Of a stretch of DNA of 64,000 bases, positions 8,048 to 29,871 are shown piece by piece. Each line of letters opens with the position of its first letter. Positions within the stretch are counted from its first letter, which is position 1. Below the pieces are notes generated by a model, which did not search any database, was not told where the DNA came from, and saw only the letters and a program-made list of their open reading frames with translations. Source of the DNA: Gordonia malaquae NBRC 108250 (GTDB lineage: Bacteria; Actinomycetota; Actinomycetes; Mycobacteriales; Mycobacteriaceae); NCBI RefSeq assembly GCF_000344135.1, contig NZ_BAOP01000004.1, positions 186,001 through 250,000 on the forward strand, written 5' to 3'. Made by a program: the position numbers and the translations under genes.

Positions 8048-8066
8048 TTCGGTTACCCTCACCTTA
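8048..8066 (-). promoter_or_regulatory. IdeR/DtxR iron box upstream of the importer operon
   Basis: On the minus strand TAAGGTGAGGGTAACCGAA matches the consensus TTAGGTTAGGCTAACCTAA at 15 of 19 positions by eye. It overlaps the stop codon of the upstream NRPS and lies 31 nt before the permease start. It implies that the importer has its own iron-repressed promoter in addition to any read-through. Confidence 0.8.
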
Positions 8067-11000
8067 ACTGTCGTGGTCGGGGCGACTCCGCAGGGCGTCT
8101 GCCCAGACGTCCAACAGTTCTGGGCTCCCTCCCCCGGTCGCACTCAGGTGAACCGAGGTCTCGTCGACCCGATACCGGTACACGGCGGAATGGAATCGCT
8201 CATCGCCCTCGGCGACGCCGGGTCGCGCAGTCTCGGCGAACTGTCGGGTCACCAGGATCGGCGCTTCGCCGAAGCGTTTCGCCACGCGGCGGCCGTCCCT
8301 GCTGCCGTATCGGGCCAGCGTTGACCAGCCGCGGTCGGCCACGGGTGTGTCCACAGCAGCGTCGAACGCCGTCGTCGACGACAGCCATCCGACGGTGCCG
8401 CTGTCGACGCCGACGATCGGACGCAAGTCCGCGTCAACGGCGACCGGGTGGCTGGATTCGACCACGGACAGGAATGCCTTCTCCACGAGAGCCGGGTCGA
8501 ACGAGCCCACGACACGGTCGATCCGAGTCTCGCCGACACGACCATCAACCGGTGCACCGCCGGGATCACGCAGTCCGTCGACCCAAGTTTCGATCGCCTC
8601 GGACTGCACGGACATCGCGAGCCGATCGGCGACATCGGCCACCGCGGCTCCAGGACGCGGCGCTTCCGAGTCGACGAGCAGCGATGCGAGTGCCGTCAAC
8701 AGCGTGTGAACCGACCGACTGTCGGCGAGCGCCCCGTGGACGGCCACCACCAGGTGCACACCGCCGGCACTGGTCACCGCGGCGACCCGCACCCCGTCGC
8801 CGGATGACACGTCGACTCCGGAGACGAGCCGGTCGACGACGTCCGCCACGGCTCGTGTCCGCGGAAGGTCGGTCTGCTCGACGGCGACAGCGTCGACGAC
8901 CCGCCGAGCTGACGGCGGGAGAACTTCGGTGAGCCAGACGCGTCCACGCGGGGAGATCCGTTGTCGCAGTGCGTCGAAGGTCGTCATCGCCGTCAGCAGT
9001 GCACCGTGGAGTTCGGTGAGCTCAGGCGCCGACGGCAGGTCGACGACTCCGGTCCGGACGAACTCAGCGAGCGGGACGTCACTTGTTCGAAGCCGGTGCT
9101 GGTTCGCGGTCGGCGGCACCGCGATCGAGTCTGCTGTCTCGGACCGTGAGTGCGTCACCGCTCCCGCCGCGATCACCGACACGGCGGCCTCCCATCGGGC
9201 GGCGAGGTCGTCGAGAGCCTCCGCGTACATCCGCCGGTCGGATTCGATGGCGAAGTCGAAGAGCACGGAGTCGCCGACGCGTCGACCCGTCACGTTGACG
9301 ACAAGAGGATGCGCAGGTTCGGCGGGGTCGGTTGCCAGGAGTCGCGGCAGTTCGTCGGGCGTGGACCAAGCGGTGTCGGCTGCAGTGCGCCCTCCGATCA
9401 CCCCGCCGAAATTGAACTGGACATCGGCGCGGGCGAATGACTCGAGCCTCGCTCGGTTCTCGGCGTCCAGGTAACGCAGCACTCCGTAGCCGAAGCCGCC
9501 GTCCGGCACCTCGTCGACGGATCGACGCGTCTGCTCCACGAGGTCGACCGCAAGGATCGGTGCGGTGGTCAGCGCGGCGGCGGTATGCGCGTCGACCTTC
9601 ACCGGGGTCGGTGCGACGACTGTGAACCAGCCCACCGTGGAGTCGACGGGCGGCGCGCCTGCGGGTGAGGTCCGACCGTGCCCTTCGAGGTCGACGAGGA
9701 CCGCGTCACCGCCTGCGGTCCCCCGCCAGGATTGCAACGCGACGGCGAAGCCGGCGAGCAGTACCGATTGAGCGAAACCGTCGTGGACGGCCGCGCCCGC
9801 GGCCACCGCCGCCCCGGTCTCGGCACCGAACACGCCGACGGCCCTGGTCGGTTCGCCTCGCTCGAGATCCGGACCGACGGGAATCGATCCGAGTCGCTCC
9901 GCCCAGAAGTCGACCTCGCCGCGCGCATGGTCGACGGCATCGGTGTTGAGATACTCCATCCACTGGAGGAACGAGTCGTCGAGCTCCGCGGTCGATCGAT
10001 TGGCGGGCGAGTCATACAAATCGGCGAGGTCCGCGACGAGGACGTCCCAGGACACGAAGTCGACGCCGAAATGGTTGACCGTCCAGACGATCACGTCGTC
10101 CTCGTCGCCTCGGTCCACGACGGCGATCGCGGTGAGATGCCCGGCCGCCGCGTCGAGCTTCTCAGCGAGACGACGATCGACGTCTGCGACGATCGATTCG
10201 AGATCGGCGCCGCTGCGGCCGACGCCGTTGATCGTCTCGATGGTCCCCGGTGTACGAGCCGTGTCTCCGAGCCGGACACCGGCCTGATCGATGCACAACG
10301 ACAGCGCGGCGTGTCGACCGACGACTGCCGTCAAGGCGACGTGCAGGCGTTTCACATCGAGGTCGGCGGGTGCGGTCAACAGCACCGTCTGTCGGAAGGA
10401 CGAGAGATCTCCGCCCGCCGCCAGTTGGCGATGCATGATCGGAGTCAGCGATGTCGCTCGATGTGTCAGCCGACGTCGCGAACGCGTGTCCTCGTCGACA
10501 GGTCTGGACGCAGAAGCGATGGCGTCCACCCGCCGGTGGTCGAAGACGTCCTTGAGCGTGATCACGACACCGTTCGCGCGTGCCTGCCGCACGACGGAGA
10601 GCGCGGAGATGCTGTCTCCTCCCAGGTGGAAGAAGTCGGCGTCGACGCCCACCTCATCGATTCCGAGAACCGAGGTGACGGCAGCGTGGACCGCGACCTC
10701 CGCCGGGCCTTCGATGGGGCGAGACTCCGGCGACGCGTCTGCGGTCGAAGGCTCGGGCAGCGCGCGTCGATCGAGTTTTCCGTTGCCGGTGAGCGGCATC
10801 GCGTCGATGCGGGTGATCGCGGCGGGAACCATGTGGACGGGCAGCGACTGCTCCAAGTGTGCGCGGATCGCGGTGGTCTCGGCGGGCGATCCGACCCAGT
10901 AGGCACTCAGATAGGCGTCGCCACTCGGTCTGCGTCCGACGACGACACGCGCGGTGTCGACCGCCGGATGAGCCTCAAGAGCCTCGACGATCTCGTGGAG

Positions 11001-14000
11001 TTCGATGCGGAACCCGCGGATCTTGACCTGCTCGTCCGCACGGGAGGCGTACTCCAGCAGGCCGTCGCTGTTCCACCGCATGAGATCGCCGGTGCGGTAC
11101 AGCCGGTCGCCGGGGGAACCGAACGGATTCGCGACGAAACGACTCGATGTGAGTCCGCCTCGATGCCAGTACCCGTCGGCGACCTGACCGCCCGCGACGT
11201 AGAGCTCGCCCACCACACCGATCGGAACCGGCCGCAATCGGTGGTCGAGGACGTACGTCGACAGACCGCGCAGCGGCCGCCCGATCACGCTCGCTCCGGA
11301 CGCCTCGTCGCCGGTGACCACGTGCACTGTGGTGTGCACTGTGGTCTCGGTGATCCCGAACATGTTGACGAGCGTGGTCTGATCCGACGGATGCGCCTCC
11401 CGCCATCGGCCGAGGCGATGAAGATCGAGCGCCTCGCCACCGAACACGACCGTGCGCAATGCGAGACCGGAGGTGTCGTCACGGTCACGTTCGGCGTCGG
11501 TCAACGCGTAGAACGCCGACGGCGTCTGATTGAGCACGGTGACCTGCTCGTCGCGGAGCAGATCGCCGAACGCTTTCGGGTCCCGCGACGTGGGGTGATC
11601 GACGACGACCACACGACCGCCGCTGCACAGCGGCGCCCACATCTCCCAGACAGAGAAGTCGAACGAGTACGAGTGGAACAGCGTCCACACGTCGTCGGGA
11701 CCGAACCCCATGTCGGAGGTCGCGTCCAGCAATGCCACCACGTTCCGGTGCGGAACCATGACGCCCTTCGGCACCCCCGTCGATCCGGACGTGTAGATCA
11801 TGTACGCCGAATCTCCGGGGCCCGGCGCACCGGACTTCTCGGCCTCCGTCAGAGGTCCGCCCGACAGCCGAGAGAGGTCGGCCGCCGTCTCCGGCGAGTT
11901 CAGGACGATGGTCGACGCGGTGGACACGGCTGCGTCGAGAACACGAAGGTCGAGGACGTCGGGGTCACTCACCAGCAGGGCCGACGGCTCGCTGTCCGCG
12001 AGCAGGTAGGTGATCCGAGCCTCCGGGTACGTCGGGTCCACCGGGACGTAGGTGGCTCCGGCAGTGAGCACGCCGAGGATCATCACGACCAGGTCGAGGC
12101 TGCGCGGCGACAGGATCGCGACCCGGTCGCCGCTCCGCACGCCCGCGTCGCCGAGGAGTCGGGCCACCCGGTTGGCTGCGCTGACGAGGTCGGCGTACGT
12201 TCGGCGGTCCTCCCCCATCGCGAGCGCGACCCGGTTCGGCGCCGCCAGGGCGATCCGGGCGACGAGTTGCTCGATCCGCGCCTCACGGGGTGAGGTGATC
12301 ACTCCGTCGGAGGGCTCCGCTGCGCTGCCTTCGATGTCGAGAGTGGAGAGTCGACGTTCGTTCCCGACTGCGAGTTCGTGGAGGCTCTGCGCCAACGCGT
12401 CGACGTATCGGCGGGCGGTCTGCTCATCGAAGAGGTCGGCGGCGAACACGACGTCGAGCGACATGCTCCCCGAGTCGAGCTCGACGATCTCGAACTCCAT
12501 GTCGAACTTCGCCCAGCCCGCGGGCGTCGGAACGAACTCCGCTGCGGCCTCCCCGATGGTCGCAGGCAGGCCGCGGCTGTTGCGGTAGACGACCATCGTC
12601 TGAAACAACGGGTGCCGCGATGTGATCCGTTCTGGATTCACGTGATCGACCACCTGCTCGAACGGCACGTCCTGGTGATCGAACGCGTCGAGAACTCGGC
12701 CGCGAGTCCGGGCGAGCAGTTCACCGCCCGTGGGGTCGCCCGACAGGTCGTTGCGGATGACGACGGTGTTGACGAAGAATCCGATGGTGTCTGCCACGGC
12801 CGGGTCGCTGCGCCCGGAGACCGGTGTTCCCACAGGCACATCCGGTCCCGCGCCGAAGCGGTCCAGAACCAGCGCCACGGCGGCCTGCGCGAACATGAAC
12901 TCGGTGACCCGGTGGGCTCGGCACGCGCCCTTGATCGCGGTGACCGTCGAAGCGTCGATCGCTCGGCTCACCGTGAACCCTCGACGGCCGGTGTCGGCGG
13001 GTCGGGCCCGGTCGGTCAACACGGGCAACTCGTCGGGCAGGTCCTGCAGCGTCTCGCCCCAGTAGTCGAGGCCGGACACACCGCGAACGTCTCGCGTGCG
13101 TTCCTGCCACGCCGCGTAGTCGGCGTACTGCACGGGCAGATCACCGAGGTCAGCCACCCTTCCGGCGGCCGCGGCACAGTACGCGGTGTCCAACTCCCGG
13201 AACAGGATCGGCAGAGACCACTGATCGAAAGCGCTGTGATGAACTACGACACACAAGACCGACTCTCCGTGGCCTGCCAGGATCGACACCCGGATCGGCG
13301 CCTGGAACTCCAGATCGAACGGGCGATCTCGACGGTCGGCGATGAAGTCGGCGATCGTCGAGTCGTCGAACACTTCGGCGGTCTGAACATCGATGTGCGG
13401 GTCGGTCACCTCCAGGACGCGTTGGACAGGTCCGTCGACACCGTCGGAGAAGACGGTTCGAAGCGACTCGTGTCGGGCGACCACGACCCGCACGGCCCGT
13501 GTGAGGGCCGCAGCGTCCAACAGTCCCCGAACGCGGAGTGGAATCACGATGTTGTAGACGGCGTTCGGGCCGTCGAGGCGATGCTGGAACCAGAGCCGCC
13601 TCTGCGCCGTCGACAGCGGCGCCTGCGTGCCGCGATCGGGTCGAACGGCGAACGCGTCGACGTCGGACTCGAGGTCGCTGTGGTCTGCTGCAAGTACGGC
13701 GGCGTCGATCCGGGCGGCGAGGGCGCCGATCGTCGGATGCTCGAACACCTCACGCAAAGCGAGAGTGACATCCCATGTCGAACTGATCGCCACCAGGAGC
13801 CTGGTCGCCGACAACGAGTGCCCGCCGAGAGCGAAGAAGTCGTCCGCCGGGCCGATGCCTGCGACACCGAGAGTCTCGCCGACGAGTTCAGCGAGACGCG
13901 CCTGGGTCGCGGTCGCCGGAGCCGCCGCCTCGGATGAGGCCATCCGCGGCTCACGCGCGGTCAGCGCCGCACGATCGATCTTCCCCGACGGCGTGGTCGG

Positions 14001-16790
14001 CAGCTCGTCGACGACGACGATCGTCGACGGCACCAGGTACGACGGCAGCGTGCGTGCCAGCCGGGCCGTCATCGCAGCCGAGTCGAGCACCGTCCTCCCG
14101 GTGACGTACGCGACGATCGTGCGATCGCCGGACGGCCCGACCGGCGCGACGACGGCAGAGTCGACCACCCCGTCGAGGGCGGACACCGCCGCTTCGATCT
14201 CTCCTAGTTCCACCCGGAATCCGCGAACCGCGACCTGGTGGTCGGTGCGACCGTGATAAATCAGCGATCCGTCGAACGACCACGTCACCAGGTCACCGGT
14301 CCGGTACAGGCGGGTCCCCGACCCGCTGGGGTCGGCGACGAACCGTTCGGAAGTGAGTGCCGGGCGGCGGTGATACCCGCGGGCCACCTGCGACCCGCCG
14401 ACGTAGAGCTCGCCGAGCATTCCCGGCGGCACCGGCGTCAACCACCGGTCGAGGACCGCGAGCCGGACACCGGGTGCGGGCGTACCGATCGTCACATGGT
14501 CGGTGACGTCGGTGAAGGTGACGTCGCCTGCCACTTCCGACGACCCGTAGGAGTTCGTGACCGTCACTGACGGATCGGCCGCGTGCAGATCGTGCACGAG
14601 ACCGGACGGCAGGTCCTCGCCGCTGGCGATCCAGCGGCGTACCGACTGCACGCGGGCGCCGCCGATGTCGATCATCGCGCGCAGCAGTGACGGCACGGCA
14701 GTCACCTGAGTGGCCGAACGAGCGTCGATGGTGTCGATGAGCCCTCGAGCGTCCTGGGCAGTGTCCTCGTCCACGAGGATCGTCGACGCTCCGGCGACGA
14801 GAGCGCCGAGGAGTTCGGTGGTTCCGTCGATGAAGCTCACCGAGCTCTTCGCCAGGCGCACATCCGGGCCGTCGACCCTCCAGCGGTCGACGGCCCACGC
14901 GACACGATCGGCGAGCGCACCGTGGGTTCCCGCCACGCCTTTCGGTACACCGGTCGAGCCGGACGTGTAGACCAGATACGCCTGATCGTCGCGCCGGGGA
15001 CTCGCCGGGCGATCCCAGTGCGGGGGCGGCCCCACCGGCCGGTCGAGCACACTGACCGGCGCGCGTGACGATCCGAGAACGCCCTCCCACTCCGCGCGCA
15101 GGGAACTCGACGTGAGAATCATGTCCGGGCTCGAATCGTCGAGCATGTACGCGACGCGCGCCGCGGGGTACGACGAGTCGATCGGCACCACGCAGGCGCC
15201 TGCCATCAGGGTCGCGAGGGTCGCCACCACATGATCGACGGTGCGGGGAAGCAGCAACGCCACCCGACTGTCCGCCCCGACCCCGCTCGAGACCAGACGT
15301 GCGGCGAGGCCGTCGGCCTGTCGGAGGAGATCGATGTACGACGTCTCGCCGCCTGCGTCGACGACGGCGACGCGATCGGCGGCACGCACTGCCGTGGCGC
15401 GGAACATCGCTCCCACCGCGGCAGACTCCGCGTGGATCGCACCGATCGACCAGTCGTCGACGAGTTCCAGTTCAGTGGCCGTCGCGACGGGGACCGTTCC
15501 TCGGGCGGTAGCCGGTTCGGCCCCGACCAGGCCTGACAGATGAGCGCACAGTCGGTCCGCGAGGACCTCCAGTTGATCGGTCGAGTAGAGGTCGGGATTG
15601 GCGTCGAGTGCAACGCTGAAGCCGTGTGTCGCATCGCGGTACACCGACAGCGCGACGTCGGTCACGGGCCCCGTGGCCAGACTCTCCTGTATTGCCCCGA
15701 TCCCCGCGAAGTCGAGCCGGTAGTCGAAGACCTTGATGTTGATCAACGACCCGACGAGATGCCGTCGCGTCCCGACCAGACCCGCGTCACGAGCGATGTC
15801 CTCCGCCCGGTACGCCTGGTGGCGACGGAGCTCGCGGAGTCCGTCGGTCACGACCCGAAGCGAGTCGACGATCGACGTCGACCCCGGCAGGTCGATGTGG
15901 AACGGCAGAACGTTGGCGGCCAGCATGGGTGTGCGGATCGCAGGGCGCCCGGCACGTCCCATCATCGGCATTCCGACGACGACGTGGTCGTCACCGCTCG
16001 TTGCACTCTGGAGCGACGCCCACGCCAGCACCGCGACATCGGCCCAGGTACTCCGAGTCGACGCGGCCAGGGAGTCGATGCGATCAGCGAGCTCGGCGTC
16101 GATCACGCGCCGGCTCTGAATCGGCGTGCGCGGGCTGACCTGGGCGAGCTCACCCTCGCCTGACAGCGGTCGGACCACTCCGCGGCCGTCGACCGTCCGC
16201 GTCCAGTATTCGCGGTCCGCGGCGATCGCATCGTCGTCGCGAGCAGACGCCTCGATCACCTCGACGAGCGACGCGAAGTTCGACTCGGGGCACACGAACC
16301 CCGTGATCGACGCCGTGTACACAGCAGCGACGCGTTTCGACACCAGGGACAATCCGTATGCGTCGATGAGGATGTGGTGGATCCGCAGGTGCCACACCCA
16401 CCGGTCCGGGCCGAGCCTGAACAGGGTCGATCCGACAAGATCATCTCCTGTCAGGCTCTGCGGAACGTCCAGCTCAGTGCGCATGGCGGCACGCGCGCCG
16501 GCCTCCGGGTCGGGCTGCCCCGACAGATCGACGACGTCCCACGGCGCGGACCGGTCCGGCGTCGTGACCGTCACCTCGCCGTCCCGATCGTCGAAACACG
16601 AGCGGAGCACGTGAGCGTCAGACCACGTCTGCGCCCAGGCTGCGGCGAACGCGTCGGGATCAACGGCCGCGTCGAACCACAGGGCCTGTCCGATGTTGAA
16701 CACCGGGCTGTCCGGCATCAGCTGCTGCGCGAACCAGACTCCCTCCTGAGCGGGCAGCAGTGTGGTTCGAGCGAGTGCGGGGGCAGACAT
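8064..16790 (-). CDS. Siderophore NRPS, starter protein: C-A-T-C-A(Thr)-T-E-E*
   Basis: This 2908-aa nonribosomal peptide synthetase has these approximate domains: C1 1-430, A1 450-945, T1 near 988 (GGHSL), C2 1050-1490 (HHSAFDQWS), A2 1510-2015, T2 near 2058 (LGGDS), E 2110-2540 ([19 protein letters not shown]), and a degenerate E-like tail 2560-2908. C1 resembles EntF ([23 protein letters not shown]), which condenses an aryl acid, so this is probably the chain-starting protein. The A2 pocket read by eye is D-F-W-N-V-G-M-V-H, the threonine code; with the E domain this gives D-Thr. A1 has Ile at the usual Asp235 position ([10 protein letters not shown]), so its substrate is uncertain. The start is the ATG 1 nt after the other NRPS's stop, implying co-translation. 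No MbtH or aryl-acid gene is in the window. Confidence 0.93.
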
Positions 16791-16791
16791 C

Positions 16792-19700
16792 TCAGTCCTC
16801 TCCAGGTGTCTGATGCAGGTGGTTCGCCCACCACGGCGACCACGCGGGCACACCCGACGTGGTGAGAAGGTCTTCGTGTCCGGCGTCGACACGCCTGACG
16901 TCGATCTCGTCGACGAAGTGTGCACTCCACCCCGCGGCCATGTCGTCGGCGGTCTCCTCGTGATCGCTTCCGATGACGAGCAGGCCCCGTGCCCGGAGCA
17001 CTCCGTGCGTCGGTGTGGACTCCTGCAGTCGAAGGCAGCGGTCGAAGGAGTCCATGAACGCCATCGATTCACTGATCGACAGCGATGCCAGAGGGCCGTC
17101 CGAGGTGGAGTTGAGCGCTGCGAGTTCGCCGCGTTCCGGCAGGCGGTCGTGCGGCGGTTTCGCATGCGGAAGACCCGCGAACTGCGCGAACGACGTGCGA
17201 ACCCGGTCGTCGCGCTCGGCGTCCGACCACGTGACGACCGTCTCCTGAGTCACTGCCGGAGTGTCGAGGATCGTCACCGTCTCCACTGCGATCCCCTGCT
17301 CTTCCAGTCGCCTGGCGACCCCGAACGCGAGGTGCCCGCCGTACGACCAGCCAAGCAGGTTGTACGGCCGGGCCGCACCCGAGTCGAGGACGGCGTCCGC
17401 ATACACGTCGACCAGTTCGTCCAGGGTGTCGACGTCCCTGGGTTCACCCGCGTGTGCTGGATCCTGGAGCGCGATCAGTCCGGCCCCCGTCGGCAGGTTC
17501 GACCGGAGGGTCGAGTAGACGGTTCCGAAGCCGGAGCTGGCGTGGATCGCGAACACCGTTCCCGCGTTCCCCGAGTCGGCGAGTGGAAGGAGGATCGGAT
17601 GGTCGACGGTCCGACCTTCGTCGATGGCGGACGCGAGTCCTCCGACAGTCGGACGAGTGAACACGGACTTCAGCGTCAACCCGCCGCCGAGGCGACCGAC
17701 GAGACGAGCCGCGAGCAGCGAATGGCCACCGAGCCGGAAGAAGTCGTCGTCGACAGTGACACGCGTGGACTCGTCGAGACCGAGGACGTCACGGATCGCG
17801 GCGACCACGTCGATCTCCGTCCGTGTGGTGGGCTCACGTCCGCCGGCCGACACGTGAACGGGCTCCGGGAGGGCGCGGGTGTCTAGCTTGCCGTTCGAGG
17901 TCACCGGGATCGAGCCGATGCGCATCCACGACGACGGCGTCATGTAGTCGGGCAGGGTTGCAGCGACATGAGCGATGATCGACTGCTCCACCGTGTCGTC
18001 GACGTCGTCGTCGGCGGCGGTGTAATACGCCACGAGGACTCGGTCGCCGTCACCACGACGGTTCTTGGCGACGACTGCCGCCGACCCCACCGCGGGGTGC
18101 TGTTCGACCACTGTGCGGATCTCGTCGATCTCGATGCGGAACCCGCGGATCTTGATCTGGTCGTCCGCGCGACCCAGGTACTCCAGGTCACCGCCGGAGT
18201 TCCATCGCACGAGGTCGCCGGTCCGGTACATTCGCTCGCCCGCACGGAAGGGATCGGCCACGAATGCCGCAGCGGTGAGATCCGGGCGGCCCGAGTAGCC
18301 CTGCGCCAGTTGGACACCGTCGAGGTACAACTCGCCGACCACTCCGATCGGGGTCGGCGCGAGAGCAGCGTCGAGGACCCTGGCACCGCTGTTGTAGGCC
18401 GGGACACCGATCGGCAGGCCGCCGCCGAACTTAGCACCGGACGCCAGCAGGGCAGCGGTCACGTGCTTTCCGGCTATGCCGACGGTCGTCTCGGTGGGCC
18501 CGTACAGGTTGTGGACGATGTCGCCGAACCGCTCGAGGGCCGCTGCCGCGGTCGCGACCGACAGCGCTTCGCCACCGCAGAACACCCGTCGCACGCTCGA
18601 GAGGTCGACGCCGTCCAGTCCGTGTTCGAGCAACGCGTCGAGCATCGACGGGACGAACTCGACGGTCGTCAGTCGCTCTTCGGCGATCACCCTCGTCAGA
18701 TAGTCCGGATCGCGGTGGCCCCCGGGTTCTGCCATGACGACGGTGGCGCCGACCATCAGCGGGACGAAGAACTCCCATAGTGACGCGTCGAAGGAGATCG
18801 GAGTCTTCTGCAAAATCCGATCGTCGATGTCGATTCCAGTGGTCTCCTGCTTCCATCGCAAGAAATTGACGAAGCCCCGATGTTCGACGACGACGCCCTT
18901 CGGCCGTCCCGTGGATCCGGACGTGTAGATGACGTACGCGACGTCGCGGCCGCGGATCGGCCCTCCGCGTTCGGCATCGCTCACCGGTTCCGGGGAACAG
19001 CGCGACACCGTCGAGCGCACGCGATCGTCGCCGAGGTCGAGCACGGTCGGCACGGTCGTGAGCGCGGAGAGGACATCACGGGTGGAGTCGTCGACGATCA
19101 CGATCCGTGCGCCGCTCTGGCTGAGCACGTAGTCGATTCGGTCCGCCGGGTTGGACGGGTCGATCGGCACGAAAGCGGCGCCCGACCGGAGAACTCCGGC
19201 CAGTACGGACGGCAGGCCGACACTCCGGTTCGCGATCACGGCGACACGATCGCCGGGTGTGACTCCGGTCGCGACCAGCGCGCGGGCCAGTCGGTTCACT
19301 GAGGCGTCGAACTCCGCGTAGTCGAGGCCTTCGCCGCCGGCCCGCACCGCGATCCGGTCCGGGTTCGATCGGGCGACCTCCGCGAGGAGTTCGTCGATCG
19401 AGGCCTCGTCGTCGAGCGGCTCCCGAGGCCCGGCCGACCACGCGTCGATGCACGCACGCTGCACGTCATCGATCACTGACACCTCCGACAACGGCCGGTC
19501 GGCATCGGCGGCGAACGCTGCGAGCACCGTGCGCATACCTGCAGCGAGCCGTCGGCCCGTCGCTTCGTCGAACAGCGACGAGGCGCACGAGACCGTCCCG
19601 GCGAGGCCCCCGCCCGCTAGCTGTTCGCCTAGATCGATCTCGAGGTCGCTCTTCACCGATCCGATCCCGATGCGTCGGCGGACAGGTTCCAGACCCGCAT

Positions 19701-22700
19701 CGGCGAGGCTGTCGACCGTGCTCCCCATGACGTCGGCGACACGATAGGTGACGAGCGTCTGAAACAGCGGGTTGTGAGCGCTGCTGCGAGGCGCCCCGAC
19801 GTGACCGACGATGCGCTCGAACGGCACGTCTTGGTTGGCGAATCCGTCCAGCACCGTCTCCCGCGCCTGCACCAGTACGTCGGCGAGAGTCGGATCGCCG
19901 TCCAACCGATGTCGCAGTGGAAGCGTGTTCACGAAGTACCCGACGACGGCGTCGAGGTCTGAGTCTCCGCGCCCGCCGACGGGCGAACCGAGAACGATGT
20001 CGTCCCCTGCCCCGTATCCGCGCATCATGACGGCGACCGCCGCCTGGACCAGCATGTACATGGTGGTGTCGGTCCGCTCGCACAGGTCTCGCAACGCCCG
20101 CGTGACATCTGCGTCGACCTCGAAGTCGACGGTGAAGCCGTCGTACTCGGCCACGGCCGGACGTGGGCGATCCACCGCCACCATCGACACCTCGGGTGCA
20201 CCGTCGACGTGCCCCCGCCAGTAGTCCAGCCGTTCTCTGCAGAGCGGGGTGGGGTCCCCGACGTTTCCGAACATCTGCCGTTGCCAGATCGAGTACTGCG
20301 CATACGTCGCGGTCGGAGCGTCGAACGTCGGAACACCGCCGGACCGCCGGACACGATAGGCGTCGCCGAGATCACGCAACAGCGGCGGCAACGACCACTC
20401 GTCCACCGCGACGTGATCGATGGCGAGCGCGACGACCGTCCCGGACCTCGACAACTCCACGTCGACGCCGCGGAAGACGGCAGACCGAACCGGGAAGTCG
20501 ACGCCGGACGTCACCGGACGTTGGACCCATTCCTCGATTCGAGCGTGGGCGTCGTCCTCGGCGTCCAGAACGAACCGGTCCGGTGCAAAGTGGTCTGCGA
20601 CCTCGTCAGCGGGCACGACGACCTGCACCAGCTCGTCGTCCGACTCGATGAGAGTGGTGCGGAGAACGCCGTGATGCACGATCACGTCGGCGAGCGCCGC
20701 GAACCAGGCGTCCTCGTCGAACTGCGCGTCCACGGTCAGGACGACGGGGATCGTGTACACCGAGCCGGGGCCCGTCACCTGCCCGATCAACCACAGGGCC
20801 TGCTGGCCGAACGATGCCGGGACGACGGCTCCGACGACGACGTCGGCGACGTGGAGTTCGTCACCCTCGCCTGTCGCGGCGCTCGCCACAGCGGTGGCGA
20901 GCGCGGCGACCGTCGGGCTGTCGAACACGTCTCGCAGGGAGAGGTTCGTGCCCAGACCGGCGTTGAGTCGGGACACGACCCGCATGGCGAGCAGCGAGTG
21001 CCCGCCGAGGCGGAAGAAGTCTGCGTCCGCGTCCACCGCGTCAAGTCCGAGGATGTCGGCGAAGGCATCTGCGATCGCCGTCTCGATGTCACCCGAGGGT
21101 GCCCGTCCCGGCGTCGTCGAGTCCTCGAGCGCCTCGAGGGCGGAGACGTCGAGTTTGCCGTTCGGGGTGAGCGGCAAGGCGTCGACGGCGATGACTGCAG
21201 ACGGGACCATGTGGACGGGTAGACGGCGGCGCAGATCGCCGCGCAGTCGTTCGGTGTCGGGTGCGGGGACGCCATGAGCGCTCGGCGTCACGTAGGCGAC
21301 GAGATGTGCCGCCCCCTGGGATCGGGAGACTACAACCGCGCAGTGGCCCACGTCCGGTGCCGCGGAGACCGCCGCTTCGACGTCGCCCAGTTCCACGCGC
21401 GAGCCGTTGATCTTGACCTGGTGGTCTGATCGTCCGATGAAGACGAGCTGCCCGTCGTCGTTCCACCGGACGAGGTCGCCGGTCCGATAGAGGCGATCGC
21501 CCGCCGTCCCGAACGGGTCGGCGACGAACGACGCCGCGGTCAGGTCCACGCGATCGAGATACCCGCGAGCCAATTGTCTGCCGCCGATGTACAGGTCGCC
21601 GACGACTCCCGGAGCCACAGGCCGCAGGAGGTCGTCGAGGACTCGGACGACTGTGTCGGCGACCGGGACGCCGATCGGCACCGCTCCGCGGTCACCGACA
21701 TCGGCGCCGCCCGCGGCGAACGAGGTCACCTCGACGGCGGCCTCAGCCGGGCCGTAGGTGTTCCACACGTGCAGACCCCACCGATCGACGATCCGGTCCA
21801 GCAACGCTGCAGAGAGAGCTTCGCCACCGAGCGACAAGTACTTGAGCGCCGAACCGGCCAGGGTCACGCCGTCGTCGAGCATCGCCGCCGCGACCGATGG
21901 GACGAGCTCGGCGAACGTGACATCGCCCGAGCGCAACAGGTCCGCGAGATACCGCAGGTCACGGTCTCCCCCGTCGGCTGCGACGACGACTCTGGCTCCG
22001 TACAACAGCGGCCAGAGGATCTCCGGGATCGCCGGGTCGAAACCGAGCGACGTCTTCTGGAGCACACCGTCGCCGGGGTGCAGTTCGAACTCGCTCTGGC
22101 GCCAACGGATCAGATTCACGATCGCGGTGTGGTCGACGAGGATGCCCTTCGGGCGGCCGGTGGACCCGGACGTGTACACCGTGTAGGCCGCATTGCTGAC
22201 GCGCACCCGTGCGGGCACTGAGGTCCCGTCGATCGGCGTCGCGGAGTCGTCGATCTCGTCCACGTTGACCAGACGTGCGCCGATCGCCCCCGCCGACGCC
22301 GCGAATCGAGATTTCGTGCCCGCCGAGGTGAGCAGAACGGTCGGACACGCATCGGCGAGGATCGCTGCGATCCGGTCGTCGGGATACGACGTGTCGATCG
22401 GCAGGATCACACCGCCGGCCAGCGGGACCGCGACGAAACCCGCGATCATCGTCGCCGACCTCGGGATCAGCAACGCGACGCGATCCTCGGGCTCGAGCCC
22501 GATTGCACGGAGCGTTCGCGCGATCGCGCTTGCGGACCTGTTGAGCTCGTCGAAGGTCAGGCTCTCGCCGTCGGCGACGACTGCGACACGATCGGCGTGG
22601 CGGGAGAACGCATCGACGAGCAGATCCCCGAGCGGAGCTTCCGCCGCCGGGACGCGTCGCCCGCCGGTCGACCAGGCGGTGATCGCGGCCGCGTCCAGAT

Positions 22701-25700
22701 CACCGGCCACCACGACCTCAGACAGACGTCGTCCGGGCGCGTCCGCGAACGAGGTGAGCACCCTCACGAGTCCCTGGGCGAGTCGTTCGGCTGTTCCGGA
22801 GTCGAACAACGCACTCGCATACGCGATGACGCCGGTCAGCCCACCCGCCTGCTCGGCGAGGTCGATCTCCAGGTCCGCCTTGACGGTTCCCACCTCAACG
22901 CGTTCGGGGAACGGACCGAATCCGGCCTCGTCGAGGAGGTCGGCGTCATCACCGATCACTCGGTCGACCCGATACGTGACCAGAGTCTGGAACAGCGGGT
23001 TGTACGCGCTGCTCCGACTCACCCCGGACCGCCCGACGATCATGTCGAACGGCACGTCCTGATGAGCGAACCCGTCCAAGACCGTTTCTCTGGCTCGCGC
23101 GATCATCTCGCGCAGTGTCGGATTGCCGTCCAGTCGATGCCGCAGCGGGAGGGTGTTCACGAAGTAGCCGACGAGGTCGTCGAGCGCCGTGTCGCCTCGG
23201 CCGCCCACCGGGGAGCCCAGCACGATGTCGTCACCCGCACCGAGCCCGTGCATCGCCACCGCCACCGCGGCCTGCATCAGCATGTACATGCTCGCGTCTT
23301 CGCGCGCGCAGAGGTCACGGAGGCGGGTGGTCACGTCGGCGGGCACAGCGAGGTCGACACTGAGACCGGCCGAGTCCCACATCGCCGGGCGCGCGCGGTC
23401 GGTCGCGATCATGGAGACCTCCGGAGCACCGTCCAGACGCTCCGCCCAGTGGTCCAGCACGACTGCCGAGTCGGCCAGCATGTCGTGCTGCCACACCGAG
23501 TACTGGCTGTAGCTCGACGCGAGAGGTGTGAAGTCCGGGGCGTTCCCGGCGGCACGCGCCGTGTAGGCGACGCCGAGGTCGCGAAGCAGGACGGGAAGTG
23601 ACCACTCGTCGATCGACGCGTGGTGGATCGCGAGCGCGACGACCGGAGTACCCGTGTTCCCCGATCCGACTGCCGCCCGCACCGGGAAATCACCCGCCAG
23701 GACAGGGCGCGCGACCCATTCCCGAACGACGTCGAGTGGCCGGGCGTCGCCGAGATCGACGCGGTCGACCTGCAGAACCTCGTCGACGTCGTCGACGGGT
23801 GTCAGTTGCTGCACGAGTTCGCCGTCCGATTCGACGAGGACCGTGCGGAGGGCCTCCTGTCTGATCACGACGTCGCGCAGTGCCGCAGACCACGCGGTCG
23901 GATCGAAGTCGTCGGACGCCGTCATCACGACCGGGATGGTGTACATCGAACTCGCCCCGGACACCTGGTCGATGAGCCACAACGATCGCTGCCCCGCCGA
24001 GGCGGGGACGACCGGACCGACGACCGTGTCCACCACCGCGGCACGCGCACCCGCCGACGTGCGGACGGCCGCCGCGATGCCGACGACCGTGGGGGCGTCG
24101 AACACTTCGCGCATCGACAGGTCGGCGTCCAGGTCGCTGTTCACCCGGGCGACGACCCGCATCGCCAGCAGCGAATGACCGCCGATCGCGAAGAAATCGT
24201 CGACGACCGACACGCGGTCGACGCCGAGAGCGTCGGCCACGATGTCGGCCACTGCGGCTTCGAGGTCGTCATGCGGCGCCACGTACTCGTCGTGGTGGAC
24301 GTCGACGGCGGGCAAGGCTCTGACGTCCACCTTTCCATTGATCGTCAACGGGATCTCGTCGAGTTGCCCGAACGCAGACGGGACCATGTAGTCGGGAAGC
24401 CGGGATGCCGAATGTGCTCGGAGGCGATCAACGTCGAGATCGGCCGCATCGGATGCGACGACGTACGCCACGAGCGTCGGCCCGCTCGCGCCGTCACGCA
24501 CCACCACCGTGGCCTGCCCGACCAGGTCGGATTCGAGCAACACGTTGGCCACTTCGCCGAGCTCGATGCGGAAGCCGCGGATCTTCACCTGGTCGTCGGC
24601 ACGACCCAGGTATTCGATGCTGCCGTCTTCGCGCCACCGGGCCAGGTCACCGGTCCGATACATGCGCTCACCGTCACCCCACGGGCAGGCGACGAACCTG
24701 TCCGCGGTCAGTCCGGGCTGGTCCTGGTACCCGCGGGCCGTGCCGGCACCCGCCAGGTACAGTTCGCCGGCCACCTGAGGCAGGACCGGGTGCAGACTCG
24801 AGTCGAGGATGTGGGCGCGGGTGTTGAAGATCGGCCGGCCGACCGACGAGACCGTGCTGTCGGCGACGTCCGCCCCCAGCGCGTTGATCGTGTACTCGGT
24901 CGGGCCGTACAGGTTGTAGCCCTCGACACCGGGAGCGTCCCGAAGCGCGGTCCACAGGACGTCCGGCACCGCCTCCCCGCCGAGAGACACGAAGACGACA
25001 CCTTCCGCATCCGCGGCCACCGATCGCCCGCGTGGGCGGTCTCGATCGAGCAGCCCCTGCTCCACGAGGTGCGTCGCATAGGACGGAGTGACGTCGAATC
25101 CGTCGATCGACGCGGAGTCGTAGTATGCGAGCAGGGCTGCCGGGTCACGCCGCAGGTCTTCGTCGATCACGTGGACCTCGTGACCCGCGAGCATCCAGAA
25201 CAACTGCTCCCACGACGCGTCGAACGAGAACGACGTGGTGTGCGCGATCCGCATCCGCCGCCCGCCCTGGCTTCCGACGACGTGCTCGAAGATCCGTTCG
25301 AGATGATTGGCGTACATGTTGGTGAGGCCGCGGTACGGCACTGCGACGCCCTTCGGCCGCCCCGTCGACCCCGACGTGAAGATGATGTAGGCGAGATTGT
25401 CGGCCGTCGCGTGCGTGCCGAGTTCGACTCGGGTGAGCGGACCCGAGTCGAGTGCGGCGATCTGTTCGGCATCGGCATCGAGATCGAGAACCGGGCACTC
25501 GGTCGCGGCGAACGTCTCCCGGTAACCCGGGCGGTCGCGCAGCGCGCCAACGGTGACGATCAGCGTCGGCCGTGCCGCGTCGACCATGTATCCGATGCGG
25601 TCCGCCGGGTAATCCGCATCGACGGGTACATACGCTGCTCCCGTCGCGAAGGTCGCGAACATCGCCACGATCATCCGATGATCGCGCGGCAGCATGAGAA

Positions 25701-28443
25701 GCACTCGCGCTTCTGGCGCCGCACCCAACTGCGCGAACATGCGCGCATGCCTGTTCACCTCGTCCCCCAGCGCAGTGAACGAGAGACGGCGGGGGCCGGC
25801 GACCAGCGCGACGTCGTCGCCGCCGCGAGCGACGCACTCGTCGAACAGGGTTGCGACGGTGACGTCGCGGACGGCCCGATCGCCGCCGTTCCACTCCTCG
25901 GCCGCCTCGGCGAGTTCGGCCGCAGTCGCGATCGACATGCTCCCCACGGGGGCGGTGAGATCAGTCGACATCGATTCGAGGACTGCCGTCAGCCGCCCGG
26001 TGAGATCGGCGATCTGCGCAGCGCTGTACAGATCACCGCGATACGCGCACCGAATGTGAATGGTCTCTCCGGGATGAACCGCGAACGAGATCGGGTAGTG
26101 CGTCGAGTCGGTCAGATCCGCCTGAGTGACTCGTACACGGCCATCGGGTCCATACGTCCGACTCTCGTCTCGTCCCGGATGGTTCTGAATGATGAACAGT
26201 GTGTCGAACAACGCGCGCAGTCCGGCGGCGGCATGGATGTCACCGAGTCCGACGTAGGGGTGATCGAGGACAGCGACTGTCGACGTGTTGACGGCGGACA
26301 GGAGTTCGCCGATCGACTGCGACGGGTTCGTGCGAACGCGAACCGGCACCGTGTTGAACAGAAGACCGACGATGCGTTCGGATCCGGCCAGTTCGGGCGG
26401 TCGGCCCGACACCGTGGTCCCGAACACGACGTCGTCCGAGCCCACCAGCCGCGACAGGACCACTCCCCATGCGGTCTGGAGGAAGGTGCTGACGGTGACA
26501 CCGGCGCGCCCCGCGGAAGCGCGGACGCGCTCGCTCAGCTCTGCGTCCAGGTCGTGGTGGTAGTCGCGGGCCATCGCCGTCGATGCTGCCGACGCGTCGG
26601 CGTCTGGACGGACCAAGGTCGGCTGGTCGATGCCGGACATCTCGCGAGCCCACACTGCTCGGGCGAGGCCGAGGTCACGTCCGCTCAACCACTCGAGGTA
26701 GTCGCGGAAGGGCACGGGTGCAGGAAGATCACGCCCGGTCGGGTCGCTGTACAACTCCAGGAGCGTGTCCATCATCAGTCCGGCCGACCAGCCGTCGGCG
26801 ACGATGTGCTCGAAAGTCACGCACAGCACCGACTCGGTTGTGGACTCCTCGACGAGGAGGAATCGGATCAGGGGCGGCTTGACCGCGGAGAACGGCCGGG
26901 CCCGTTCCGCGGCGAAGAGGACGTCGAGCCCTGCCCGGTGATCCCACTCCGAACTGCGCACAACAGTGAAGTCCGGCTCGACGACGGCAGGGAGGACTGA
27001 CAGTGACCGATCACCGAAGGTGACGAAGCCCGCCGCCAGGTTGGGGTGACGTCGGAGCAGCGACGCCACGGCGTCACGCATCCGATCCGGATCGACGGGC
27101 CCGGCGAGCCGAAGGTGGAACTGCGAAGCGTACAGGTCCGTGGTGGCCGACGACTGCGCCGAGGACAGGTGATAGAGCAGCCCCTCCTGCAGCGTGGACA
27201 CCGGCAGGATGTCGCGAACCGCGCCGAAGGTCTGCTCGACGCCTGCCCGCGCCGCTGCACTCACTTCGACGAGGGGCGCCGGAACACCCACCCGATGCAC
27301 GTCGGCGGGTGGACGCACGCCGGAGCGGACAAGACCGTCGACGATCCCCGCACACAATCGATCGGCGTCCACGTCGACGTCCGGAGCGACGACGACGTCC
27401 ACCGCGACATCGCCGTCTCGACGCGGAATCCACACGGTCACAAGCACTCGATAGCGGCCGAAATCGGTGATCTCGCCCCTGCTGCTCGTCGGATCGGGCA
27501 GTGCGTCACCCGACCGCAGCGCCACCAGGACTTCTGCTTCGGCGAGATCGTCGAACAGTCCGTCGGCGAGTGGATTGTCGAATCGGAGAGCACCGTAGTC
27601 CGCGGCCGTCTGTGCATCGACATCAGTGACGACACCGTCCGATTCAAGGACCTCGGTCGACAGCAGGAGCGGGAACCGGCGTCGGATTCGACCCGGCACT
27701 GCCACCAGATCCGGTGTCCGAGCGGGCTCTTCAACGTCCACCAGCAGCCCGTCGCCGAGGTCGCCGGAGAGGCCTCGGATGACGACGAGTGATCGGCCCA
27801 CGAGTGCGGCGACGTCACCGTGCGACGACCCTGTCGCCCGCCTGGCCACCCGCGCCGATCGCACGGCGGTCTGTGCACCACGTCCGCCACCGCGGGCGAC
27901 CTGTGCGGGTTCGAGATCCTCCAGGTCGCCGGCGAATCGGTGCCAGTGGTCCCGATCGAACACGTCACTGGACTTGTTGTGGGCGGAGAGTCGAGCCGCT
28001 GCCGCGTCGACGTCGCCGACGACGGACTCCATCGGCCGTCCGCCGTAGTGCGCGTGGGCCAGGTCGGCGATCACGTCGGACGCGCCGTCTAGCCACACCT
28101 CGTCGACGTCCGCTGAGGTCACGGTGATCGAGAAGCCGGCGATGCGCCCGGCGGGATCGGTCACTCGCCGGACCGAGATCGACGCCCCCGCGTCGGACCG
28201 CACTCCGGAAGCGTTCTCGGCCCAGTGCGTGTACGCCTCCAGCACGACGTCGGCCGGCAGGCCGACGACGCCGGGCACCTCGACGACGAGGGAATCCGGG
28301 CCGAGCCCACACCCGGCGTCCACGTCCGCGTCGGCGAGGAGGTCGAGCGTCGCCCCGCGGTATGGGGCGACAGCGACGGCCGCGCCGTCGATGGACGTCT
28401 CGCCGCGATCGGAACCTGTCACCGTGCTGAACGTCTCGGTCAT
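16792..28443 (-). CDS. Siderophore NRPS, terminating protein: E*-(C-A-T)x3-TE
   Basis: This 3883-aa synthetase has these approximate domains: degenerate E-like head 1-405, C1 408-855 ([22 protein letters not shown]), A1 870-1385, T1 near 1421, C2 1480-1910 (HHASIDEWS), A2 1935-2440, T2 near 2480, C3 2540-2985 (DHVAVDEWS), A3 3000-3530, T3 near 3571, and TE 3625-3883 with the GWSYGG nucleophile motif near 3698. C1 looks like a type accepting D-residues, fitting the epimerase of the other protein. Pocket residues read by eye: A1 D-A-E-D-S-G-L-I-N, close to hydroxyornithine codes as I recall them; A2 D-P-P-E-S-G-T-V-E, unassigned; A3 D-A-W-E-F-G-L-V-G, perhaps Gln/Glu-like. The ATG at 28443 has GGAGGG 9 nt upstream and an iron box just before it. 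Substrates are inference. Confidence 0.94.
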
Positions 28444-28587: not shown

Positions 28588-29589
28588 CTACTTGGACACG
28601 GCCTCGGAGAACTTCGGCGCCACCTGGCCGACGCCCCACTCAAGACTCTGCGGAGACGGGAAGCCGAGCGCGAACGGAACACCCTCCGACTTCGGGACCA
28701 CGGTGAACGCTCCGCGCTTGACCGCGGGCAGCTGCGGCCACAGCGGCTGCGCGTCGAGAACCGACATCTGGTCGGCGGTGTCGGGGATCACCCAGAGGAG
28801 ATCGGCGTCGAGCTTGGGCAGGTTCTCCCACGAGACCTCCCCCTTGCCGCCGTCGCACTCGACGGTCTTCGCGTAGTCGCTGAGTTCGAGGCCGAGACCC
28901 TTCATCGCACGTGCCATGTTGTCCTCTTCCGAGCACAGGACGTACACGCCGTCCTCCGACGGCGAGATGATGGCGTTGTACTTCTTGCCTGCGAGCTTCG
29001 GGTTCGCCTCGCGGACCGACGTCATCGACGCCTCGGCCGCGGTGATGCTCTCCTCCGCCTTCTCGGTGCCGCCGACCGCCTTGCCGACCTTGCGGACGTT
29101 GTCCTGCCACGCGTCGGCATTGGCCTCGGTGTCGAAGTGCACGACCGGCGCGATGTCCGAGAGCGCTCCGTAGACCTTCTCGTCCAGTCCCCAGAAACCG
29201 GTTGCGACGATCAAGTCCGGGTCGAGGGCGGCGACGGCTTCAACGCTGATGTCGGTTGCCGGCGCGTCGACCTTCGGGGTGTCGGCCGGGTAGAGCGACT
29301 TCTGCCACGGGTAGATTCCGGTGCCGCCTGTCGCAGCGTTCGACTGTTCGAGGATCGGCACCGCGATCGGCTTGGCGCCCGCCGCGAACACGAAGTCGGC
29401 GTCCGTCGTCGACAGCGCGACGATGCGCTGCGGCGCGCCCTCGATCGTGGCCTCGCCGAACGCACCGGAAACGGTGACAGCCGCATCCGCGGAGTCGCCG
29501 GAGTCGCTGGAGCACGCGACCGGCAGGACGAGAACGGCGGCTAGTGCCGCCGCCGCCCCGACAGAGCGGAATCGACTGGAGATGTGCAT
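28588..29589 (-). CDS. Iron-siderophore substrate-binding lipoprotein (FecB type)
   Basis: This is the extracytoplasmic receptor that captures ferric siderophore and delivers it to the FecCD-type permeases. The 333-aa protein has a lipoprotein signal (MHISSRFRSVG, hydrophobic core, lipobox LPVAC with Cys26). A periplasmic-binding-protein fold follows: RIVALSTTDADFVFAAGAKPIAVP, then DPDLIVATGFWGLDEKVYGALSDIAPVV, both typical of the FepB/FhuD class. The ATG at 29589 was chosen because it places the signal peptide correctly; the open frame further upstream crosses a tRNA gene. It has its own iron box 142 nt upstream and its own terminator, so it is a separate monocistronic iron-regulated unit. 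Confidence 0.93.
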   Translation of the reverse strand: MHISSRFRSVGAAAALAAVLVLPVACSSDSGDSADAAVTVSGAFGEATIEGAPQRIVALSTTDADFVFAAGAKPIAVPILEQSNAATGGTGIYPWQKSLYPADTPKVDAPATDISVEAVAALDPDLIVATGFWGLDEKVYGALSDIAPVVHFDTEANADAWQDNVRKVGKAVGGTEKAEESITAAEASMTSVREANPKLAGKKYNAIISPSEDGVYVLCSEEDNMARAMKGLGLELSDYAKTVECDGGKGEVSWENLPKLDADLLWVIPDTADQMSVLDAQPLWPQLPAVKRGAFTVVPKSEGVPFALGFPSPQSLEWGVGQVAPKFSEAVSK

Positions 29590-29730
29590 GGGACGAAGTT
29601 CCTTCGCTGACGGCGACGGCGACGTGCACCGTCGACTACGGGGCAGCCCCGCACGGGAAGGCGAGGCCGGGCCTCGATGAATCGGACACCGAAGACGGGC
29701 GTCCGCCACATCGAAGACTCGATGCGATAG

Positions 29731-29749
29731 TAAACTAAGCCTAAGCTGA
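29731..29749 (-). promoter_or_regulatory. IdeR/DtxR-like iron box upstream of the FecB-type gene
   Basis: On the minus strand TCAGCTTAGGCTTAGTTTA matches the consensus at 13 of 19 positions, including the TTAGGCT centre. It is weaker than the other two boxes in the locus. Its place between the tRNA and the lipoprotein gene makes it the likely operator, with a leader of about 130-140 nt. Confidence 0.68.
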
Positions 29750-29800
29750 TAAGTCAACGGAGCCCCATATACGACGACTCGACGGAGTCGCCCAAAACAG

Positions 29801-29871
29801 AGCGGATGACAGGACTCGAACCTGCGTAGACGGTTTTGCAGACCGCTGCTTGACCACTCAGCCACACCCGC
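29801..29871 (-). tRNA. tRNA-Cys(GCA)
   Basis: On the minus strand the acceptor stem GCGGGTG / CATCCGC pairs with one G-T wobble. The anticodon loop is CTGCAAA with anticodon GCA, and the T arm is CAGGTTCGAGTCCTG. The CCA end is not encoded. It forms the right border of the siderophore locus. Confidence 0.95.

What the first reader, a model, noticed from the sequence alone, without database searches (positions are those of the whole stretch)
8064..9113. Matching degenerate epimerization-like domains at the junction of the two NRPS proteins
The starter NRPS already has a full T-E ending (E about residues 2110-2540), yet another 350 residues follow. These look like a shrunken E domain: [25 protein letters not shown] in place of HHxxxDxxSW, and [14 protein letters not shown] in place of the SRTVGWFT motif. 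The other NRPS begins (27229-28443) with about 405 residues that also look like a decayed E domain: [20 protein letters not shown] for [10 protein letters not shown], and DYGALRF for GYGLLRY. Both lack the catalytic histidines. Their placement on the C-terminus of the predicted donor and the N-terminus of the predicted acceptor suggests a pair of inactive E folds repurposed as a docking device between synthetases.
Basis: partly seen in the sequence, partly recalled or inferred. Interest (0 to 1): 0.75.

Follow-up and report, generated by a model that had tools for sequence, protein, structure and literature searches.

The report
Paired dead epimerase domains joining synthetases
Two large enzymes that together seem to build an iron-scavenging peptide carry catalytically dead copies of an epimerase domain at their meeting ends; related bacteria keep the pair together with a special condensation module, which suggests that the dead domains hand the growing peptide from one enzyme to the other.

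Summary
The last 349 residues of the donor NRPS (TAIL, 8067-9113) and the first ~405 of the acceptor NRPS (HEAD, 27229-28443) are divergent epimerization-type (E) domains without the catalytic second histidine. TAIL is E-like over most of its length; HEAD demonstrably only over its C-terminal ~220 columns. Of 401 family genomes, 23 have a strong TAIL and 20 a HEAD, 17 both; a targeted re-search added HEAD in five more TAIL genomes. TAIL ends its protein in 23 of 23. HEAD follows neither T nor E in 24 of 24. It precedes a condensation domain with EHxxxDGWS instead of HHxxxDGWS (21 of 21 scored) and an adenylation domain coded DAEDSGLINK (23 of 23). Against: three HEAD genomes lack a strong TAIL, and one of them has a single multi-domain NRPS, so HEAD is not only a TAIL receptor. 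In most relatives HEAD is internal, behind an intact second C domain or a formyltransferase. Best reading: HEAD-C(EH)-A-T is an entry port for a chain delivered in trans, docked by TAIL; in many relatives the port residue may be acylated twice. Docking is inferred; structure prediction never ran.

The parts
8067..9113 (-). TAIL: C-terminal inactive E-type domain of the donor NRPS (signature H-G-A-L-A-D-S: first His and Asp kept, second His lost)
   Evidence: hhalign to E prob 97.9; E domains are the best PDB hits; motif alignment; Pfam Condensation 20 bits, below cut-off
9120..10490 (-). E domain with the second His kept ([10 protein letters not shown]) directly before TAIL
   Evidence: custom HMM 440 bits; motif
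8064..16790 (-). Donor NRPS, 2908 aa: Cst-A-T-C-A-T-E-TAIL
   Evidence: start codon context
27229..28443 (-). HEAD: N-terminal inactive E-type domain of the acceptor NRPS (both His absent; VDVEEPAR in place of [14 protein letters not shown])
   Evidence: hhalign to E prob 97.1, E 5.4e-11 over 219 columns; no Pfam/NCBIfam/PDB match
25906..27210 (-). C(EH): condensation domain after HEAD, motif EHIVADGWS (first His replaced by Glu)
24307..25848 (-). Adenylation domain of the port module, code DAEDSGLINK (N5-hydroxyornithine-like; label recalled)
16792..28443 (-). Acceptor NRPS, 3883 aa: HEAD-C(EH)-A-T-C-A-T-C-A-T-TE; its gene lies upstream of the donor gene
28588..29865 (-). Periplasmic (siderophore-type) binding protein
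   Evidence: PF01497 89.6 bits
5892..7952 (-). FecCD-family iron-siderophore permease
   Evidence: PF01032 268.6 bits

Best explanation
HEAD-C(EH)-A-T is an acceptor port for a peptide chain that arrives on another protein. TAIL, fixed to the end of the donor, docks on or beside HEAD and so places the donor's last carrier domain at the donor site of C(EH), which joins the chain to the port residue. Both modules derive from E domains that lost catalysis and kept a binding role. In this window the hand-over is linear: donor Cst-A-T-C-A-T-E-TAIL to acceptor HEAD-C(EH)-A-T-C-A-T-C-A-T-TE. In relatives an additional acylating domain sits in front of HEAD (a C domain fed in cis, or a formyltransferase), so the port residue, a hydroxyornithine-like diamino acid by its code, may receive two acyl groups. 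Shown: E relationship, loss of the second His, positions, co-occurrence, the EH and DAEDSGLINK signatures, purifying selection. Inferred: physical docking, carrier placement, donor-to-acceptor direction, substrate identity, double acylation.
For: TAIL ends its protein in 23 of 23, 0-26 residues before the stop. None of 24 HEADs follows T or E: 2 are N-terminal, 6 follow a formyltransferase, 16 follow a full C, and that C has an intact HHxxxD in 16 of 16; so the C after HEAD lacks a directly preceding carrier in cis. First-pass overlap 17 of 23 TAIL and 20 HEAD genomes among 401, p = 3e-22; 22 of 23 TAIL genomes after the targeted re-search. TAIL and HEAD lie on one contig within about 33 kb in 17 of those 22, on separate contigs of draft assemblies in 5 (coordinates). 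C after HEAD: Glu at the first motif position in 21 of 21 scored, against 0 of 87 T-preceded and 0 of 18 E-preceded. A after HEAD-C: DAEDSGLINK in 23 of 23, in no other of the 173 A domains. A second family: G533 has C-HEAD-C(EHILLDGWS) and T-TAIL. TAIL signature H-x4-D in 22 of 22. dN/dS below 1 for TAIL and HEAD in every pair compared. Precedent for a non-catalytic adaptor before a C domain that recruits the donor carrier: TomB BN, a PCP-like domain (PMC11186497, passages seen).
Against: HEAD without a strong TAIL in G178, G191 and G320; G320 has only one multi-domain NRPS locus by a C-domain search, so there HEAD-C(EH) has no evident trans donor. TAIL without HEAD in G209 (draft fragment). 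G453 and G661 have TAIL, but no HEAD was found at 1e-6. The re-search that raised the overlap was run only in TAIL genomes. Mirror-tree test null: partial r 0.11 and 0.20, p 0.29 and 0.13, 11 genomes. No structure or interface model. Relatedness inflates the co-occurrence statistics.
Confidence: 0.5

Rival explanations
1. HEAD is a structural or substrate-positioning part of the C(EH)-A module (the remnant of an E-DCL didomain needed for the fold or acceptor geometry of C(EH)), and does not dock TAIL. TAIL is a separate remnant.
For: HEAD is linked without exception to C(EH) and to DAEDSGLINK but not to TAIL (3 of 25 HEAD genomes lack it). C(EH) falls in the clade of E-preceded C domains, support 0.998 (the clade also holds 7 T-preceded and 3 N-terminal C domains). 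G320 has HEAD with no evident donor protein.
Against: Does not explain why TAIL is confined to clusters with HEAD (22 of 23) or why HEAD never follows a carrier or E in cis. HEAD has higher dN/dS than C(EH) and its A domain in the four pairs compared.
Confidence: 0.25
2. TAIL and/or HEAD recruit a tailoring enzyme, as X domains recruit P450s in glycopeptide synthetases or interface domains serve beta-hydroxylases.
For: X domains are C/E folds with HRxxxDD instead of HHxxxDG (PMC11546977, passages), like TAIL's kept first His and Asp. Interface domains are a known siderophore-NRPS type (PMC12230676, passages).
Against: No P450 or oxygenase among the 30 window ORFs scanned with Pfam (not every ORF was scanned). 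The Orn N-oxygenase and a formyltransferase lie on another contig. TAIL sits after T at a protein end, not between T and TE, and no X-domain structure was among its PDB matches.
Confidence: 0.12
3. Both are decaying relics of split or duplicated E domains without present function.
For: Catalytic residues lost; TAIL or HEAD often has the highest dN/dS of its cluster.
Against: dN/dS 0.20-0.52, all below 1; conserved H-x4-D signature in 22 of 22 with the second His gone in all; full-length frames across several genera and a second family.
Confidence: 0.08

Closest known systems
NRPS epimerization (E) domains
   Same: Same superfamily; TAIL keeps first His and Asp of HHxxxDG; HEAD keeps VDxE..R, YxxLR-like motifs and an E-to-C linker
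   Different: Second His absent in both; HEAD does not follow a carrier domain; TAIL is about 100 residues shorter than E (349 against 463 aa as cut)
COM and other NRPS docking domains (passages in PMC11186497 and PMC11546977; details partly recalled)
   Same: Lie at a protein junction, pairwise, non-catalytic
   Different: Known docking elements are small; these are 350-400 aa E-derived domains, and HEAD is mostly internal in relatives
PCP-like adaptor BN of TomB (PMC11186497, passages)
   Same: Folded non-catalytic domain directly in front of a C domain fed by another protein
   Different: BN is PCP-like and binds the carrier itself; HEAD is E-like and has a C-terminal partner on most donors
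X domain of glycopeptide synthetases (PMC11546977, passages)
   Same: Inactive C/E fold with altered HHxxxDG, recruits a partner protein
   Different: Recruits P450s at the last module; no P450 seen here, different position
Interface domains of siderophore NRPSs (PMC12230676, passages; primary paper PMC6778253 not held, recalled)
   Same: Condensation-superfamily domain without peptide-bond role in siderophore synthetases
   Different: Serve beta-hydroxylases; no such enzyme among the window ORFs scanned; not compared by sequence

Membership tests
E domain | Sequence homology to E domains | tested here: met
   TAIL-E prob 97.9; HEAD-E prob 97.1 but only 219 columns; reversed controls <= 0.2
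E domain | HHxxxDG with the second (catalytic) His | tested here: not met
   TAIL: second His lost in 22 of 22. HEAD: no such motif in 24 of 24, N-lobe alignment uncertain
E domain | Directly follows the carrier whose residue it epimerizes | tested here: not met
   HEAD follows T in 0 of 24; TAIL follows T directly in 17 of 23, an E or E-like domain in 5, a fragment in 1
NRPS docking pair | Located at the facing ends of partner proteins | tested here: inconclusive
   TAIL C-terminal in 23 of 23; HEAD N-terminal in 2 of 24, internal or behind a formyltransferase in 22
NRPS docking pair | Partners co-occur | tested here: inconclusive
   22 of 23 TAIL genomes have HEAD, 22 of 25 HEAD genomes have a strong TAIL, after a re-search done in TAIL genomes only
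NRPS docking pair | Physical interaction | not testable with these tools
   Structure prediction was busy and then switched off; complexes could not be submitted
Small docking domain (COM type) | Short terminal element | tested here: not met
   349 and about 405 aa
X domain | HRxxxDD, between last T and TE, recruits P450 | tested here: not met
   Motif H-x4-D-[RS]; position differs; no P450 among ORFs scanned
Interface domain | Partner beta-hydroxylase near or fused | tested here: inconclusive
   None among the window ORFs scanned with Pfam; no interface-domain profile was compared

The most novel reading that the evidence does not exclude
A two-input port in NRPS assembly lines. [C or formyltransferase]-HEAD-C(EH)-A-T acylates both nitrogens of one hydroxyornithine-like residue, one from the domain in front of HEAD and one by C(EH) from a chain delivered in trans by TAIL. 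An inactive E pair thereby turns a linear synthetase into a convergent, branched one, with the H-to-E change marking C domains that act at the port. This window would be the form that has lost the upstream acylator.
Probability: 0.33. Interest if true: 0.82.

Novelty: new variant of a known kind. Interest (0 to 1): 0.6.

Why it matters
How separately encoded NRPSs find each other limits prediction and engineering of peptides. A large E-derived docking pair, recognisable by H-x4-D-R at donor ends and EHxxxDGWS in the C domain after HEAD, would allow the order of proteins to be read from sequence and could be used as a connector. The C-HEAD-C and formyltransferase-HEAD-C forms point to siderophores with branched residues that linear rules would predict wrongly, and the EH-type C domain is a testable subtype.

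Tried and rejected
Mirror-tree: HEAD-TAIL distances correlate (r 0.80) but not beyond the C(EH) or A distances (partial r 0.11 and 0.20; p 0.29 and 0.13; 11 genomes); no support for coevolution. HEAD against Pfam: 0 matches in the window HEAD and in 5 of 5 relatives; against PDB only a DNA ligase at E 1.8. Plasmid tblastn with TAIL: none. The search for related loci with A3 failed for lack of conserved stretches; with A4 it gave 8 loci, which named genus g10 as Williamsia. The idea that the Williamsia donor is only a linear dimodule inserted in trans (it starts with A, no C) was not kept as the general rule, because donors in G152, G305, G396 and G400 bring their own starter-type C. A chance explanation was rejected by reversed-sequence controls. 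TAIL hits below 100 bits (73 of the 96 genomes at E <= 1e-8) were set aside before counting as probable cross-hits to ordinary E domains or to the related aT2 class; this threshold was chosen after seeing the list. Papers: eight searches listed none that by title or abstract start describes an inactive E pair as docking device; the library is open-access only and abstracts were seen as listings.

Full report
What is there. Two NRPS genes run head to tail on the minus strand. The upstream gene (28443..16792) encodes HEAD-C-A-T-C-A-T-C-A-T-TE and ends with a TGA at 16794-16792; the downstream gene starts at ATG 16790 and encodes Cst-A-T-C-A-T-E-TAIL. The starter-type C and the TE suggest that the downstream gene's product is the donor and the upstream one's the acceptor. 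A FecCD permease and a periplasmic binding protein flank them, and the genome has an Orn/Lys N-monooxygenase, a formyltransferase and two ABC exporters on contig C70, so a hydroxamate-containing siderophore is likely (inference).

Nature of TAIL and HEAD. TAIL has a Pfam Condensation match below cut-off (20 bits). A profile of ten TAILs hits solved E domains first (6ta8 1.6e-8, 2xhg 1.1e-6). HEAD alone matches no library. With 24 HEAD, 22 TAIL and 27 E sequences, hhalign gives TAIL-E 97.9, HEAD-E 97.1 over 219 columns (VDVEEPAR over VDLEGHGR, the PGR..RYPV stretch, YxxLR and the E-to-C linker), HEAD-TAIL 90.5, HEAD-C 0.17, HEAD-A 0.17, and 0.04-0.12 for the reversed-sequence controls. The first half of HEAD aligns to nothing. 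TAIL keeps the first His and the Asp in 22 of 22, has G, A, Q, P, R or S for the second His in 22 of 22, and R (20) or S (2) after the Asp. By review the second His is the one long held catalytic, although its role is debated (PMC11546977, passages).

Selection. Between the window and its closest relative G315, dN/dS is 0.254 for HEAD and 0.199 for TAIL, against 0.068-0.248 for the other twelve domains. In three Williamsia pairs TAIL has 0.28-0.52 and HEAD 0.29-0.41; in two further donor comparisons TAIL has 0.31 and 0.42. TAIL or HEAD is the fastest domain in all six comparisons, but every value is below 1. In the last two pairs the acceptor proteins were not compared because the script could not match their domain order. 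This fits a binding or structural role better than catalysis or free decay.

Distribution. In 401 genomes of the family, 96 match the TAIL profile at E <= 1e-8, of which 23 reach 100 bits; the rest are mostly weak and were set aside. HEAD matches in 20. Seventeen have both; Fisher p = 3e-22, uncorrected for relatedness. The first look scores only about four candidates per genome, so misses are possible. TAIL genomes without HEAD were G209, G256, G263, G293, G299 and G334. In G293 and G299 a neighbouring protein has two C domains around an unassigned ~370-aa segment, and this matches the HEAD profile at 42 and 36 bits. The G293 segment then found relatives in G334, G256 and G263, not in G209. 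So 22 of 23 TAIL genomes have HEAD; 22 of 25 HEAD genomes have a strong TAIL. This second step was aimed at TAIL genomes only. Among 374 genomes of the class, HEAD was found only in the own genome and G533, TAIL at 1e-15 in G000, G057 (80 bits, an ordinary E-like match by its architecture), G453, G533 and G661, the last three of another family. G533 shows T-C-HEAD-C(EHILLDGWS) and A-T-TAIL. Genus g10 is Williamsia by record titles; the window's own genus is unnamed.

Architectures. (I) Window and G315: Cst-A-T-C-A-T-E-TAIL and HEAD-C-A-T-C-A-T-C-A-T-TE. (II) G152, G305, G396, G400: donor Cst-A-T-C-A-T-TAIL (in G152 Cst lies in another frame of the draft), acceptor Cst-A-T-C-HEAD-C-A-T-TE; G066 has the same acceptor and a T-TAIL contig end. 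(III) Six Williamsia-group genomes: donor A-T-C-A-T-TAIL, acceptor ...C-A-T-C-HEAD-C-A-T-C-A-T (TE called in some). (IV) G352: donor A-T-E-C-A-T-TAIL, acceptor C-A-T-C-A-T-C-HEAD-C-A-T-TE. (V) G256, G293, G299: long donors ending T-TAIL (G256 and G299 in broken frames), acceptor A-T-C-HEAD-C-A-T-E-C-A-T. (VI) G059, G076 (two copies, one split by an in-frame stop), G151, G178, G191: formyltransferase, half C domain, HEAD, C. The formyltransferase is confirmed by Pfam in 4 of 4 tested, the half C by Pfam in 1 of 4, by the HMM in G059 and both G076 copies, and by hhalign of G059 plus G191 (prob 96.4). G320: Cst-A-T-E-C-A-T-C-HEAD-C-A-T with no TAIL.

The port module. The C after HEAD carries Glu in place of the first His of HHxxxDGWS in 21 of 21 scored, against 0 of 87 T-preceded and 0 of 18 E-preceded C domains; G256 and G533 agree. 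These C domains fall with the E-preceded ones in one clade (support 0.998, 53 leaves including 7 T-preceded and 3 N-terminal); the 17 HEAD-preceded ones plus three others form a sub-clade, while G293 and G299 lie outside it. The following A domain has code DAEDSGLINK in 23 of 23, seen in none of the other 150 of 173 A domains. It resembles DMENLGLINK, which I recall as N5-hydroxyornithine. Shared descent of one module explains part of this constancy.

Where HEAD sits. Of 24 HEADs, 2 are N-terminal, 6 follow a formyltransferase, 16 follow a full C domain, none follows T or E. The C in front of HEAD has an intact HHxxxD in 16 of 16. The C after HEAD therefore lacks a directly preceding carrier in cis, and a donor from another protein is the simplest supply; TAIL marks such donors in 22 of 25 HEAD genomes.

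A parallel case. In G068, G095 and G108 a different decayed E ends the donor (aT2) and another (X2: LLAPAxLVDExSW, both His gone, 3 of 3) sits between a starter-like C and a C in the acceptor; that C reads EFILWDGWS, so here the second His is gone too, and its A domain codes DMENLGLINK in 3 of 3. aT2 is related to both E and TAIL (prob 99.7 and 98.8). This may be an independent use of the same arrangement; that its C looks inactive warns that C(EH) activity is not proven.

Interpretation. The data support inactive E domains kept for a non-catalytic role at points where a chain enters from another protein. Docking of TAIL to HEAD is the simplest account but is not shown: three genomes have HEAD without a strong TAIL, the coevolution test was null, and no structure could be computed. 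A junction in the same G352 cluster, a protein ending in plain T-E, shows no TAIL, so not every NRPS end there carries one. The bolder reading is that the port residue is acylated twice, by the domain in front of HEAD and by C(EH). It explains the C-HEAD-C and formyltransferase-HEAD-C forms, and G320 if one chain is used twice, but it rests on recalled code labels and no known product.

Literature. Eight searches listed no paper that, by title or abstract start, describes such a pair. Passages were read in PMC5550956, PMC12230676, PMC11186497, PMC11546977 and PMC10212144. The closest precedent is the PCP-like adaptor of TomB. The primary paper on interface domains was not held.

Noticed in passing
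window 58692-63120: A DNA polymerase A-type protein (58692-60515) and a DUF2637 protein (61864-63120) suggest an integrated mobile element downstream.
   Followed up: no
L178, L177, L179, L069, L137, L160: NRPS N-termini in which a formyltransferase domain stands in front of the C-terminal half of a condensation domain, before HEAD.
   Followed up: partly
L076, L078, L086-L087 (G068, G108, G095): Separate class with decayed E domains on both sides of a protein junction and a C domain that lost the second His (EFILWDGWS).
   Followed up: partly
L201 (G000:C70:3000-22900): Orn/Lys N-monooxygenase, formyltransferase and two ABC exporters on another contig, probably tailoring and export genes for this siderophore.
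   Followed up: partly
L182: Record titled Kitasatospora arboriphila NRRL B-24581 carries the Williamsia-type locus and its genome (G106) is grouped in the same genus as Williamsia; probably a mislabelled record.
   Followed up: no
G000:C114:147334-187269: A 13,312-codon NRPS open frame in the same genome.
   Followed up: no
L067 (G059 C5): Williamsia limnetica NRPS that ends in two consecutive E-type domains, the second with SHLVVDAMSW.
   Followed up: no
L055, L058: In G059 and G151 the E-type domain before TAIL also lost its second His (IHQFVVDR, IHSAVVDS), so two inactive E domains stand in a row.
   Followed up: partly
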